Origin: Isosphaera sp. | GTDB lineage: Bacteria > Planctomycetota > Planctomycetia > Gemmatales > Gemmataceae | NCBI GenBank assembly: GCA_013822345.1 | Contig: PNKH01000019.1 | Coordinates: forward strand, 16,420 to 80,419 | DNA: 64,000 nt | Direction of reading: 5' to 3' | Shown: positions 12,974-17,701 of the stretch, in pieces | Position numbering within the stretch: the stretch's first letter is position 1 | Layout: each line of letters begins with the position of its first letter | Made by a program: the position numbers and the translations under genes | The notes under the pieces: generated by a model | Told to the model about the DNA's origin: nothing | Databases searched by the model: none | Seen by the model: the letters and a program-made list of their open reading frames with translations, nothing else

Positions 12974-13888
12974 ATGCCCGACCTGTCCGTGACCCTCGGC
13001 CGGCTCACCCTCCGCAACCCCGTCCTGGTCGCGTCCGGGACGTTCGGGTACGCCCGGGAGATGGCGCCGTTCGTCGACTTCGCCCGGCTCGGCGGGGTCA
13101 TCCCGAAGACGGTCACCGCCGCCCCGCGGGCCGGCAACCCGCCGCCGCGGACGGTCGAGACGGCGTCCGGGATGCTGAACGCCATCGGCCTCGACAACGA
13201 CGGCCTCGAGCACTTCCTGGCGCATCACCTGCCGTACCTCCGGACGCTGCCGACGGCGGTGGTCGGGAACGTCGCCGGGAAGAGCGAGGACGAGTTCGTG
13301 GCGATGGCCGGGCGGGTGCGCGAGGCCGGGGCCGGCCTGGCGGCGCTGGAGCTGAACCTGTCGTGCCCGAACGTGTCCGGCGGGCTCGACTTCGCCACCG
13401 ACCCGGACGTGACGCGGCGGATCGTCCGCCGCTGCCGCGACGCCTGCCCGGACCTGCCGCTGGTCGCCAAGCTGACGCCGAACGTGACGGACATCACGGC
13501 GATCGCCCGGGCGGCGGCGGACGGCGGGGCGGACGCGGTGAGTGCGGTGAACACGTTCGTCGGGATGGCGGTGGACTGGCGGCGGCGGCGGCCGATCCTG
13601 GGGAACGTGACGGGCGGCTTGAGCGGGCCGGCGGTGAAGCCGCTGGCGCTGCGGGCGGTGTGGCGGATCGCGAAGCTGGGGGCGGTGCCGGTGGTCGCGG
13701 TCGGCGGGATCGCGACCCTCGACGACGTGATGGAGTTCCTGGTGGCGGGGGCGAGTGCGGTGCAGATCGGGACGGCGAACTTCTACGACCCGACGGCGAG
13801 CGTGCGGGTGGTGGACGGGCTGCCCGGCGCGCTGGCGGCGCTCGGCGCCGACCGCGTCGCGGACGTGGTGGGGACGCTCCGAACGTAG
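12974..13888 (+). CDS. pyrD: Dihydroorotate dehydrogenase (class 1 type)
   Basis: This 304-residue FMN enzyme of pyrimidine synthesis oxidises dihydroorotate to orotate. Key features are the N-terminal NPVLVASGTFGYA, GNPPPRTVET with GMLNAIGLDN, the loop NLSCPNV containing the class-1 catalytic cysteine, VAKLTPNVTDI, and the C-terminal phosphate-binding VVAVGGIATLDDVMEFL and GASAVQIGTANF. The cysteine base marks the cytosolic class 1 type. Class 1B enzymes use a PyrK partner and NAD; no pyrK is adjacent, so the subtype is tentative. The TAG stop is the first triplet of an E-type cloverleaf repeat. Confidence 0.96.
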   Translation: MPDLSVTLGRLTLRNPVLVASGTFGYAREMAPFVDFARLGGVIPKTVTAAPRAGNPPPRTVETASGMLNAIGLDNDGLEHFLAHHLPYLRTLPTAVVGNVAGKSEDEFVAMAGRVREAGAGLAALELNLSCPNVSGGLDFATDPDVTRRIVRRCRDACPDLPLVAKLTPNVTDITAIARAAADGGADAVSAVNTFVGMAVDWRRRRPILGNVTGGLSGPAVKPLALRAVWRIAKLGAVPVVAVGGIATLDDVMEFLVAGASAVQIGTANFYDPTASVRVVDGLPGALAALGADRVADVVGTLRT

Positions 13889-13973
13889 GGTGGGCCGAGC
13901 CCGGCTCTGCGGGCGAGTCCCACCAACGGTACGCGGGTGGGACTCGGTCCGAAGCGGACCTCGGCCCACCCTA
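13886..13973. repeat. Cloverleaf palindromic element, family E
   Basis: Outer arms TAGGGTGGGCCGAG / CTCGGCCCACCCTA enclose two side hairpins (GCCCG...CGGGC and GGTCCG-AAG-CGGACC) and a central GAGTCCCACC / GGTGGGACTC stem. The left TAG is the stop of pyrD. The right end, read on the minus strand, is also TAG and is the stop of the convergent gene at 13971-14402, so one 88-bp element ends both genes. Confidence 0.95.
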
Positions 13974-14402
13974 CGCTGACCCCGCCGGGCCGGCCGGCCT
14001 CGGCGGGACCTCCTCCCAGAACAGCTCGCGGCCGGCGGCGAACGCCTCGCTGGCCCGGTAGTCGAACACCTGGGCCACCTCGGTCGGCTCCAGCCCGAGC
14101 GAGTCCAGCGACACGTAGAACAGCCCCTTCAGGTACGCCACCCGGGCGTCCGCGATCCGGGCCTTCGGCTGGCTCGGCCGCATCTGCAGCCGGAACTCCT
14201 CGACGCCCTCCAGCCGGATCACCAGCCGGACGGGACGCGGGTCGGCGCCGAGCGCCCTGACCGGCTCCCGGGCGGTGACGTGGAACTCGACCGCGACCTC
14301 CTTCGGCCGCGGGTACAGCACCTTCACCCGGCGGATGCGGCCGCCGGGCAGGCGGAACCGGCGGAGGAAGGCGGCGGTGTCGTGCGGGGGGATGCGGTTC
14401 AT
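13971..14402 (-). CDS. Conserved-looking hypothetical protein
   Basis: This 143-residue soluble protein starts at MNRIPPHDTAAFLRRFRLPGG. It has alternating hydrophobic strands (VKVLYPRP, VAVEFHVTAR, VRLVIRLEGVEEFRLQMRP) and then a helical part ending with FYVSLDSLGLEPTEVAQVFDY. There is no signal peptide, TM helix or recognised motif. Strong GC3 bias supports coding. The stop is supplied by the adjacent E-type repeat, and the gene is convergent with pyrD. The fold looks like a small alpha/beta domain, possibly ligand-binding; no function is proposed. Confidence 0.65.
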   Translation of the reverse strand: MNRIPPHDTAAFLRRFRLPGGRIRRVKVLYPRPKEVAVEFHVTAREPVRALGADPRPVRLVIRLEGVEEFRLQMRPSQPKARIADARVAYLKGLFYVSLDSLGLEPTEVAQVFDYRASEAFAAGRELFWEEVPPRPAGPAGSA

Positions 14403-14472
14403 GGGTGGTGGCCCGTCGGGCCGCGGGCGGGCGGGGCGTCCGCCGGCACCCATCATACCGGGCCGGCCGGGG

Positions 14473-14787
14473 TCACACCAGCGAGTCGAACACCCGGACG
14501 GCGGCCCAGTTCGCCTTGTTCTCGGCGATGAACCGGTCGTGGGTGGCGTCCTCCTGGTAGGCGTCGTGGGCGGCCTTGTCGACGAACACCAGGTGGAGCC
14601 CGACGTCCCAGTCCCGGTCGTTGACCGGGCGGTCTAACTCGGCGCAGAGCGAGCCGGCGGCGAAGAACACGATCCCGGGCTGGACGTTCAGGTACTTCTT
14701 GCAGGCGTCGACCAACTCCTGCACCCGCGCCGGGGCGTTGTCCGTGAGCTTGAAGAAGACGTTGTGGGCGAGCCGCGGGCCGGGCAT
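14473..14787 (-). CDS. Dabb-family (stress-responsive alpha/beta barrel) protein
   Basis: This 104-residue protein is the size of a single Dabb ferredoxin-like domain. Evidence: LAHNVFFKLTDNAPARVQELVDACKKYL, the family pattern of a strand ending in Phe-Lys followed by a helix; then VQPGIVFFAAG, WDVGLHLVFVDKAAHDAYQ and the closing HDRFI...AAVRVFDSLV. Dabb proteins are dimeric. Some are stress-induced or act as small-molecule cyclases, but most in bacteria are uncharacterised. The start is the ATG just before PGPRLAHN. Confidence 0.8.
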   Translation of the reverse strand: MPGPRLAHNVFFKLTDNAPARVQELVDACKKYLNVQPGIVFFAAGSLCAELDRPVNDRDWDVGLHLVFVDKAAHDAYQEDATHDRFIAENKANWAAVRVFDSLV

Positions 14788-14898
14788 GGGTGGACCTCGG
14801 GGTGGGGCGTGTCCGGTCGTGATACGACTGCCGCCGAATTGCGGCACCGCCGCGGCGGGCTTACAATCCGGGTACCGCTCACCCCACGGGGGCCGGCC

Positions 14899-16454: not shown

Positions 16455-16463
16455 TCGGCAGGG

Positions 16464-16889
16464 TCACACCTCCGGGATGTCGATATCGGCGAGCGGGTCG
16501 GGTTCGGCCCGCGGCACCGGCGGCAGCGCCTTCACCGCCTCCCAGTCGACCGCGGCGAACACCTCGTCCATCCCGCGGACCACCCCGAGCAGGCTGGCGG
16601 CGGCCATCTCGAAGTTGGTGTGCGGGGAGAACGCCCGGAAGTGGGCGGCGAAGTGGTCGGCGGCGCGGCGGACCTTCGCCAGCTTCCCCTTCAGCCGGCG
16701 GAGGTAGTCGGCGAGGTCGCCGCGCTGGCGGGCGGGTTCCACCGCCCGGGTCGCGTCGTACAGCGTGCGCGGCACGTCGAGCATGTCCTCGTCCGCCTGG
16801 ATCTCGTCCGCGTGCTTCAGGAACGTGCGGACCATCCAGGCGTGGGCCAGGAGCGCGTCCAACCGCTCGACGGCGTCGTGCGGCGCCAT
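16464..16889 (-). CDS. Hypothetical helical protein coupled to a membrane protein
   Basis: This 141-residue, all-helical soluble protein (HDAVERLDALLAHAWMVRTF, LADYLRRLKGKLAKVRRAAD, FEMAAASLLGVVRGMDEVF) ends in an acidic, Pro-rich tail. No family is recognised. Its ATG overlaps the stop of the upstream membrane-protein gene (TGATG type), so translation is probably coupled and the two may work together. Helical, His- and Glu-containing layout could bind metal or the membrane partner; this is a guess. Confidence 0.65.
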   Translation of the reverse strand: MAPHDAVERLDALLAHAWMVRTFLKHADEIQADEDMLDVPRTLYDATRAVEPARQRGDLADYLRRLKGKLAKVRRAADHFAAHFRAFSPHTNFEMAAASLLGVVRGMDEVFAAVDWEAVKALPPVPRAEPDPLADIDIPEV

Positions 16890-17512
16890 CACCTCACTGG
16901 GGGTACGGTTTCCGACGGGACCGGGGCGGGCTTCGGCGGGCCGCCCTTCGCCGCCTCCAGGTCCTCCTTCGACATCAGCACCAGGAACGTGCCGACGGCC
17001 ACCAGGAGGATGCCGACCGGCAGCTTCCACCCCGGCACCTCGAACCCGAAGTGCCACGGGTCGCCCGGCCTCGGGTGCCAGACCAGGCTGAGCACGGTGT
17101 TGACGGCCGGGGCCAGGGCGAAGATCAGCGGGGCGATGAACACCCGGTACGTCGCCGGGTCCACCCCGTCGGACAAGGCCTGGTCGACCGCCGCCTTGCT
17201 GGCGAAGATCACGCAGATCGCCCCGACGGCCCCGGCGACCCCGGCCAGGGAGGCGAACACCAGCCCGGACGTCTTCCATACCGCGGCCGCGTCCGCCCGG
17301 GTGCTCATCAGGGCCAGCGGGATCAGCACGGCGAGGAAGAAGTACGCCACCCCGACGCACAGGATCGACGCGAGCCGCCCGCCCACCCCGACCGGCCGGC
17401 CGGTCGGGCCGACGGGGCTCAGCTCCGTCCCGCCGTAGAAGATGATCGGAACGTAGGTCCCCCAGGCCAGCCCCGCCAGGATCACGTACCCCCACCACGG
17501 CATGTTGCTCAT
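16889..17512 (-). CDS. Multi-pass membrane protein
   Basis: This 207-residue inner-membrane protein has about five or six hydrophobic helices (WWGYVILAGLAWGTYVPIIF, LCVGVAYFFLAVLIPLALM, GLVFASLAGVAGAVGAICVI, FIAPLIFALAPAVNTVLSL, VGILLVAVGTFLVL). The cytoplasmic tail is Lys/Pro-rich. The layout recalls EamA/DMT-type transporters or sugar-transport GRP-like proteins with paired helices and an Ala/Gly-rich core, but no signature is decisive. The downstream helical gene overlaps by one base. Confidence 0.75.
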   Translation of the reverse strand: MSNMPWWGYVILAGLAWGTYVPIIFYGGTELSPVGPTGRPVGVGGRLASILCVGVAYFFLAVLIPLALMSTRADAAAVWKTSGLVFASLAGVAGAVGAICVIFASKAAVDQALSDGVDPATYRVFIAPLIFALAPAVNTVLSLVWHPRPGDPWHFGFEVPGWKLPVGILLVAVGTFLVLMSKEDLEAAKGGPPKPAPVPSETVPPVR

Positions 17513-17611
17513 CGGCCGACGGTCTCCCTACCCGGGGGACCGACTCGGCCCGCGCCCGGCGGGTGATGTCCTAGACCCCGGGCGCGGCGCCGTCAAGCGC
17601 GGGCGGGGCGG

Positions 17612-17701
17612 TAGGGTGGGCCGAGCCCGGCTTTGCGGGCGAGTCCCACCGCGCCGGGGGTGGTGGGACTCGCGGGCGAAGCGCCCGCTCGGCCCACCCT
17701 A
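17612..17701. repeat. Cloverleaf palindromic element, family E
   Basis: Outer arms TAGGGTGGGCCGAG / CTCGGCCCACCCTA enclose side hairpins GCCCG...CGGGC and GCGGGCG-AAG-CGCCCGC and a central GAGTCCCACC / GGTGGGACTC stem. The outer and central stems match the copy at 13886, but the second side arm is a different sequence that still pairs. It lies 7 bases 3' of the di-haem oxidoreductase stop. Confidence 0.96.

What the first reader, a model, noticed from the sequence alone, without database searches (positions are those of the whole stretch)
13886..17701. Family E repeat: a cloverleaf with side arms that covary between copies
The complete copies at 10007-10114, 13886-13973 and 17612-17701 can each form an outer stem (TAGGGT...), a central stem and two side hairpins. 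Side arms differ in sequence between copies but remain paired: GGTCCG/CGGACC, GCGGGCG/CGCCCGC, GGCCGCG/CGCGGCC and CCGGGCG/CGCCCGG, always around an AAG or CTT apex. Compensatory change is strong evidence that structure, in DNA or RNA, is maintained or copied. I know of no described family with this shape, though I could not search.
Basis: partly seen in the sequence, partly recalled or inferred. Interest (0 to 1): 0.85.

Follow-up and report, generated by a model that had tools for sequence, protein, structure and literature searches.

The report
REPIN mobile palindromes at gene ends
These cloverleaf repeats belong to a family of at least 129 complete copies of a REPIN, a short paired palindrome that is likely moved by the REP-type transposase whose gene, broken in this assembly, lies between two copies in the same genome, and in half of the 72 copies examined the TAG in the repeat's first four letters is also the stop codon of a neighbouring gene.

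Summary
In detail: all three copies are present, fold in silico as a cloverleaf, and their side arms covary above shuffled and slid controls. It is not an undescribed family. Each half is a GTAG-headed REP (repetitive extragenic palindrome) with a bulged stem and an inner arm; two inverted REPs around a short drifting spacer make a REPIN (GTAG head-to-head dimer). The genome holds 129 complete copies by one pattern (reversed control 0). A REP-associated tyrosine transposase (RAYT; NCBIfam NF047646; a close relative matches E. coli TnpA_REP, PDB 4er8) lies between two copies on contig C14, split by a frameshift in this assembly. In two same-genus species the unbroken gene has GTAGGGTG-type elements on both sides. 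Arms are modular: related spacers carry different arms, so part of the covariation probably reflects swapping of whole paired arms. Copies sit at gene 3' ends. In 40 of 91 gene ends facing an element the stop codon is the TAG of GTAG, at the ancestral C-terminus in 5 of 5 informative genes. Stop-codon provision, the clover fold, the convergent bias and occurrence in Planctomycetes are in print. My added hypothesis, unproven, is that REPINs land at pre-existing nnG-TAG stop codons.

The parts
10006..10115 (.). Complete REPIN, C subfamily (GTAGGGTGCGGTCGAG / GTAGGGTGCCGTCGAG heads), arms CCGGGCG.. and GGCCGCG..
   Evidence: one mismatch in the outer stem
13885..13974 (.). Complete REPIN, G subfamily; both heads supply a TAG stop codon
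17611..17702 (.). Complete REPIN, G subfamily
63953..64000 (+). REPIN cut by the end of the contig; its head supplies the stop of the gene 63207-63956
9401..10009 (+). NuoC-like gene (name recalled from its C-terminal sequence; no family call) whose TAG stop is the head of the 10006 copy; ends at the same residue as in 28 of 28 relatives examined
12974..13888 (+). Dihydroorotate-dehydrogenase-like gene (name recalled, no family call) ending on the head of the 13885 copy
13971..14456 (-). Convergent gene ending on the other head of the 13885 copy; its C-terminus varies too much among relatives to be informative
63207..63956 (+). Sir2-like gene (name recalled, no family call) ending on the head of the truncated copy

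Best explanation
The repeats are REPINs, pairs of inverted GTAG-headed REP palindromes around a short drifting spacer, likely spread in trans by the REP-associated tyrosine transposase (RAYT) whose gene, frameshifted in this assembly, lies between two copies on another contig of this genome. Shown by sequence: the GTAG heads, the bulged stem with an inner arm, the paired arms, at least 129 complete copies, a RAYT between two copies here and beside such elements in relatives, the bias to gene 3' ends, and the use of the head's TAG as a stop codon. Inferred from the E. coli TnpA_REP literature: the transposase binds the GTAG plus the bulged hairpin on single-stranded DNA, cuts beside it with the catalytic tyrosine and rejoins it elsewhere, so the arm would only have to be paired and its sequence would be free to change. 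Also inferred: the transcribed hairpin next to a stop codon may damp translation or protect mRNA ends. Because the RAYT is split between two frames in this assembly, this population may no longer be moving.
For: 129 complete copies, reversed control 0; 11 of 31 genomes including this one hold copies. RAYT on C14 between copies at C14:52393-52502 and 53079-53188. NCBIfam REP_Tyr_transpos: C-terminal piece 140.7 bits (cut-off 80), N-terminal piece 27 bits, below the cut-off. The relative L209, itself flanked by GTAGGGTGGG palindromes, matches PDB 4er8 TnpA_REP at 8.3e-41. Same-genus RAYTs without internal stops: G013 and G015 have GTAGGGTG-type elements on both sides (the 3' one of G015 is cut by the contig end; the inner part of the 3' one of G013 is longer), G016 has another GTAG type. 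By eye against the alignment, the C piece keeps the HUH motif, W94, Q95, R104 and Y115 (residue roles from passages of PMC6006769 and PMC8266576). Covariation. Gene-end bias: 25 convergent, 36 codirectional, 2 divergent, 9 not callable, of 72 copies.
Against: No movement was observed. The RAYT here is frameshifted (or misassembled), so the present source is uncertain. Of the 35 loci examined around PF01797 hits in this genome and 10 relatives (68 hits listed), none had a GTAGGGT[GC] head within the flanks held; of five wider own loci, only L036 had a complete copy, about 3.4 kb from its Y1 gene, plus one lone head. Nine of 18 same-genus relatives lack this exact pattern. Elements occur in same-genus genomes where the protein search found no RAYT of this type (G001, G004, G005, G018: no match at all). 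The bulge bases that E. coli TnpA_REP needs were not tested here.
Confidence: 0.93

Rival explanations
1. The elements are domesticated bidirectional transcription terminators or mRNA 3'-end hairpins kept by host selection, not mobile DNA.
For: They lie at gene 3' ends and between convergent genes and form very stable RNA hairpins in silico.
Against: No T-run follows the three window copies, by reading (the terminator scan tool was not run). Copies with an exact 8-base head and tail recur genome-wide, a RAYT lies between two copies, and related spacers carry different arms.
Confidence: 0.2
2. The stop-codon overlap arises because insertions happen anywhere and only those whose TAG falls in frame survive, with the gene shortened or lengthened to fit.
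For: One third of random insertions would be in frame, and Di Nocera et al. 2013 describe REPs as providing stop codons (PMC3733652).
Against: In 5 of 5 informative genes (of 7 tested) the protein ends where most relatives end. Only 1 of 91 gene ends reads into an element past its head. The single head position holds 40 of 91 ends, against at most 7 at any other position.
Confidence: 0.2
3. The arm covariation is only inheritance of a few ancestral arm types plus template-switch repair of palindromes, with no selection on pairing.
For: Left and right arms match within an element more than by chance (20 of 56, null mean 3.0; 9 of 38, null mean 2.8, p 0.0012). Some halves have become perfect palindromes (for example L275, L288). 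Spacer lineages show arm swapping.
Against: Of 64 elements with different left and right arms, 51 keep both arms paired by at least 4 bp. Distinct arms are 92-98% Watson-Crick at pairs 2-5, against 44-60% when partners are shuffled.
Confidence: 0.35

Closest known systems
REPINs (REP doublets forming hairpins; Bertels & Rainey 2011, PMC3116915, passages read)
   Same: Two inverted conserved REPs, less conserved spacer, hairpin or 'clover' fold, RAYT in the genome, common compensatory changes
   Different: Inner arms here are hypervariable cassettes (66 distinct arms of at least 15 nt in 94 copies); the host genome is very GC-rich (72.9% over the own loci)
GTAG REP families and head-to-head dimers (Di Nocera et al. 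2013, PMC3733652, Results parts 1-3 of 4 and passages read)
   Same: GTAG terminus, long paired loops with alternative termini (GTAG-3, GTAG-14), heterodimers, location next to gene 3' ends, TAG supplied as a stop codon, presence in Planctomycetes
   Different: Not matched here to any of their 24 families (their figures are not held); the parts read report no test of the ancestral stop position
E. coli TnpA_REP / long bulged REP (PDB 4er8; PMC8266576 and PMC6006769, passages read)
   Same: RAYT relative with the GTAG-contact and catalytic residues kept (by eye); bulged stem with a second inner stem
   Different: No biochemistry on this pair; cleavage site unknown; this genome's RAYT is frameshifted
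IS200/IS605 insertion sequences (passages in PMC6006769, PMC8266576)
   Same: Y1 HUH transposase, hairpin ends, target and guide tetranucleotides
   Different: No transposase inside the element; both ends carry GTAG

Membership tests
GTAG REP | Conserved 5' GTAG next to a palindrome | tested here: met
   129 complete copies by a pattern that requires it. One search, which tolerates 2 mismatches, gives 194 hits against 93 control; most of the roughly 100 hits listed keep GTAG
GTAG REP | Imperfect palindrome with bulge and inner stem (long REP) | tested here: met
   Halves of the window copies fold alone as a basal stem, an unpaired stretch and an inner arm
REPIN | Two inverted REPs, conserved ends, less conserved spacer | tested here: met
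   95 complete copies collected, 94 split into halves and spacer; spacers mostly differ
REPIN | RAYT in the genome flanked by the same REPs | tested here: met
   same-genus relatives
REPIN | Intact RAYT in the same genome | tested here: not met
   In this assembly the frame changes between the pieces matching profile 2-30 and 31-146; no internal stop in G013, G015, G016
REPIN | Excision or transposition observed | not testable with these tools
   needs reads or strains
Intrinsic bidirectional terminator | GC hairpin followed by a T-run | tested here: not met
   No T-run after the three window copies, by reading only
Rfam RNA family | Match at gathering score | tested here: not met
   One Rfam match in the window, elsewhere (55031-55077)

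The most novel reading that the evidence does not exclude
REPINs do not merely supply stop codons: the RAYT inserts them at a pre-existing GTAG, as IS200/IS605 elements insert beside a target tetranucleotide, so in GC-rich genomes the nnG-TAG stop codon is the natural, harmless landing pad and one of the two GTAG heads is the host's own stop codon.
Probability: 0.4. Interest if true: 0.65.

Novelty: new member of a known kind. Interest (0 to 1): 0.38.

Why it matters
How REPINs choose where to land is not settled in what I read: PMC8266576 (passages) deals with how RAYTs choose cleavage sites and explains it for only one of three systems. A family in which half of the examined copies have a head on a stop codon would make target choice directly testable and could explain why such elements gather at gene ends without harm. 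The modular arms also give natural variants showing which part of a REP may vary in sequence as long as it pairs.

Tried and rejected
PF01797 alone missed this RAYT. A first motif-based profile covered only part of the Y1 loci; the rebuilt profile found it. A known RNA family was not supported. Stepwise compensatory mutation as the sole source of arm variation was set aside because spacer lineages carry different arms. Two of seven genes tested for the ancestral stop, window 13971-14456 and a UbiE-like gene, were uninformative because C-termini vary. A text search for Gemmata palindromes listed nothing relevant among 12 of 22 papers. A tree-based covariation null (R-scape), structure prediction, a covariance model and the terminator scan were not run.

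Limits of counts: 95 distinct complete copies were collected from own loci, of which 64 fit the interior length of the pattern and 31 are longer; 94 split into halves; 72 had 330 nt of flank on both sides. One of 92 3'-end sides gave no stop and was dropped. Loci were mostly chosen around copies (one search added twelve 20-kb stretches from contig starts), so genome-wide rates are not implied. Gene ends were called by a home-made codon model, and by ORF length, not by annotation. In the ortholog tests, the 39%-identical Sir2-like hit of G007 and two TrpC fragments without a C-terminus (one piece in G003, one in G018) were not counted.
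Full report
WHAT IS THERE. The three copies are real, at 10006-10115, 13885-13974 and 17611-17702 when the G that precedes TAGGGT is included; a fourth at 63953 is cut by the contig end. Each copy is two inverted halves. One half reads GTAG, then GGTGGG, an unpaired CCGAG-type stretch, a self-paired arm, a CGAGT-type stretch and CCCACC. So a half alone is a hairpin with a GTAG foot, a bulge and an inner stem, and the two halves together make the cloverleaf. A second subfamily has GGTGCG..CGCACC in place of GGTGGG..CCCACC.

HOW MANY. 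The pattern GTAGGGTG-N50-80-CACCCTAC has 129 matches in the genome (7.47 Mb, 226 contigs) against none for the reversed pattern. Among the 95 copies collected, 31 have longer interiors and are not among the 129. Of 31 genomes searched (own included) 11 have matches: this one, 9 of 18 same-genus relatives, and one in the same class, with other arm and stem variants. Named close homologs of a neighbouring protein are from Gemmata and Gemmataceae, so the host is probably in that family; this was not tested further.

STRUCTURE AND COVARIATION. On 51 G-subfamily copies (those with both arms of 16-21 nt), 97.1% of cells of the cloverleaf are paired against 92.4% in shuffles and 37-43% when partners are slid; 61 cells are changed on both sides against 15.9 shuffled; the two coarser measures are less clear (18 of 500 and 9 of 500 shuffles reach them). 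RNAalifold predicts the cloverleaf without being told it. The outer stem hardly varies, partly because copies were chosen by exact ends, so the covariation comes almost wholly from the two arms. Over 66 distinct arms, pairs 2-5 are 92-98% Watson-Crick against 44-60% shuffled. Exceptions: 11 of 66 distinct arms (15 of 179 arm copies) have only 1-3 contiguous basal pairs, and 7 of 16 distinct 5-nt left stems lack a perfect partner in the example taken. Fifty-seven of 89 elements with two measurable arms have arms that differ in the stem itself. Left and right arms agree more often than chance (20 of 56 and 9 of 38, null means 3.0 and 2.8). Elements with related spacers carry different arms (for example GGCGGCGCGT in L070, L267 and L311 with five different arms). 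I infer that arms are exchanged as paired cassettes, so a double change is often one event. By MFE with DNA parameters 35 of 95 copies prefer three hairpins and 56 one long hairpin; the former all have unlike arms.

THE TRANSPOSASE. Pfam Y1_Tnp finds five loci in this genome; none has a GTAGGGT[GC] head within the loci fetched with them (about 1.5 kb each side), and of the wider stretches only one (L036) has a complete copy, about 3.4 kb away. A profile built here found a further gene between two complete copies on C14, 20 nt after one and 5 nt before the other. Its two pieces lie in different frames and both match NCBIfam REP-associated tyrosine transposase (27 and 140.7 bits, cut-off 80). 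A relative in an uncultured Roseicyclus (L209), itself flanked by GTAGGGTGGG palindromes, matches E. coli TnpA_REP (PDB 4er8) at 8.3e-41. In G013 and G015 the gene has no internal stop and has GTAGGGTGGGTCGAG elements of the same build on both sides; in G016 another GTAG family. The frameshift here may be real or an assembly error.

WHERE THEY SIT. Of 72 copies with enough flank, 25 are between convergent gene ends, 36 between codirectional genes, 2 between divergent genes; 9 have a side that could not be called. Of 91 gene ends facing a copy, the stop codon is the TAG of the GTAG head in 40; it lies 2-28 nt upstream in 45, further up in 5, and inside the element in 1. Thirty-six of 72 copies have at least one such head and 4 have two. 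In 118 stretches from other bacteria the same position holds 13 of 107 called gene ends, with at most 4 at any other position.

IS THE STOP ANCESTRAL? I compared seven such genes with relatives. For window 12974-13888, 15 of 18 same-genus relatives end at the same residue (others -1, +1, +3). For 63207-63956, 13 of 17 are within one residue. For 9401-10009, 28 of 28 relatives end at the same residue. For a TrpC-like gene, 12 of 16 are within one residue. For a DUF1501 gene, 115 of 120 homologs end at the same residue. Two others were uninformative. Relatives without an element there carry G-TAG at the same stop in 3 of 18, 1 of 17, 1 of 17 and 4 of 16 same-genus cases for the genes 12974, 63207, 9401 and TrpC; most of the others have TGA, TAA or TAG after another base. 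In G011 the Sir2-like gene bears an element of another subfamily at the same stop, while G018 has TGA and no element. Among 586 element-free gene ends here, 111 end in GTAG and only 34 GTAG or CTAC lie in the next 3-31 nt. A rule 'land at GTAG' therefore predicts many hits on stop codons, whereas random landing predicts a few per cent. This fits target choice at GTAG but does not prove it: the observed 40 to 45 is below the 111 to 34 expected if every head were a target; one explanation is that only one head of each element can be the target. The biochemical literature treats GTAG as part of the REP and places the cuts at CT beside it (PMC8266576, passages), which is evidence against the simplest form of the idea.

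WHAT IS ALREADY KNOWN. [quoted passage not shown] PMC3116915 and PMC2817692 passages). Effects of a REP within 15 nt of a stop codon on translation are cited in PMC12306157 (passages). Searches for stop-codon targeting by REPINs were 3 papers; 6; 12 listed of 60; no listed title or abstract opening states it, nor do the passages I read in PMC3733652, PMC3116915, PMC3686654, PMC8266576, PMC6006769 and PMC2817692. The rest of those papers, the other listed papers and all supplements were not read, so this is no proof of absence.

VERDICT. A well-populated REPIN family with its own (here broken) RAYT: a new member of a known kind, with two less usual traits, cassette-like paired arms and a large share of copies on native stop codons.

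Noticed in passing
window 12438-12523, 27514-27580, 57841-57923: Another inverted-repeat family (CCGGGCGAACCGCGACCGTCAGGGAGCGGGTG and its reverse complement around a short loop of roughly 9-12 nt), without a GTAG head.
   Followed up: no
window 55031-55077: Rfam Acido-Lenti-1 (RF01687) match, 39.4 bits, itself GC-rich and palindromic.
   Followed up: no
L365 (G011:C262) and L356 (own genome): Orthologous Sir2-like genes carry elements of different subfamilies at the same stop codon, suggesting independent insertions at one site.
   Followed up: partly
L036-L040: The five other Y1 transposase genes of this genome lack GTAGGGTG heads close by; several ORFs around them read through other repeated motifs, as if each had its own repeat family.
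   Followed up: no
L275 3125, L288 3243, L041 10794, L283 3262, L036 1391: Half-elements that have become (near-)perfect palindromes (CGAGT side replaced by the complement of the CCGAG side), as template-switch repair would give.
   Followed up: partly
window 190-843: Five 126-nt tandem repeats, with a related stretch at 5894-5973; separately, 886-1185 is repeated at 6803-7102.
   Followed up: no
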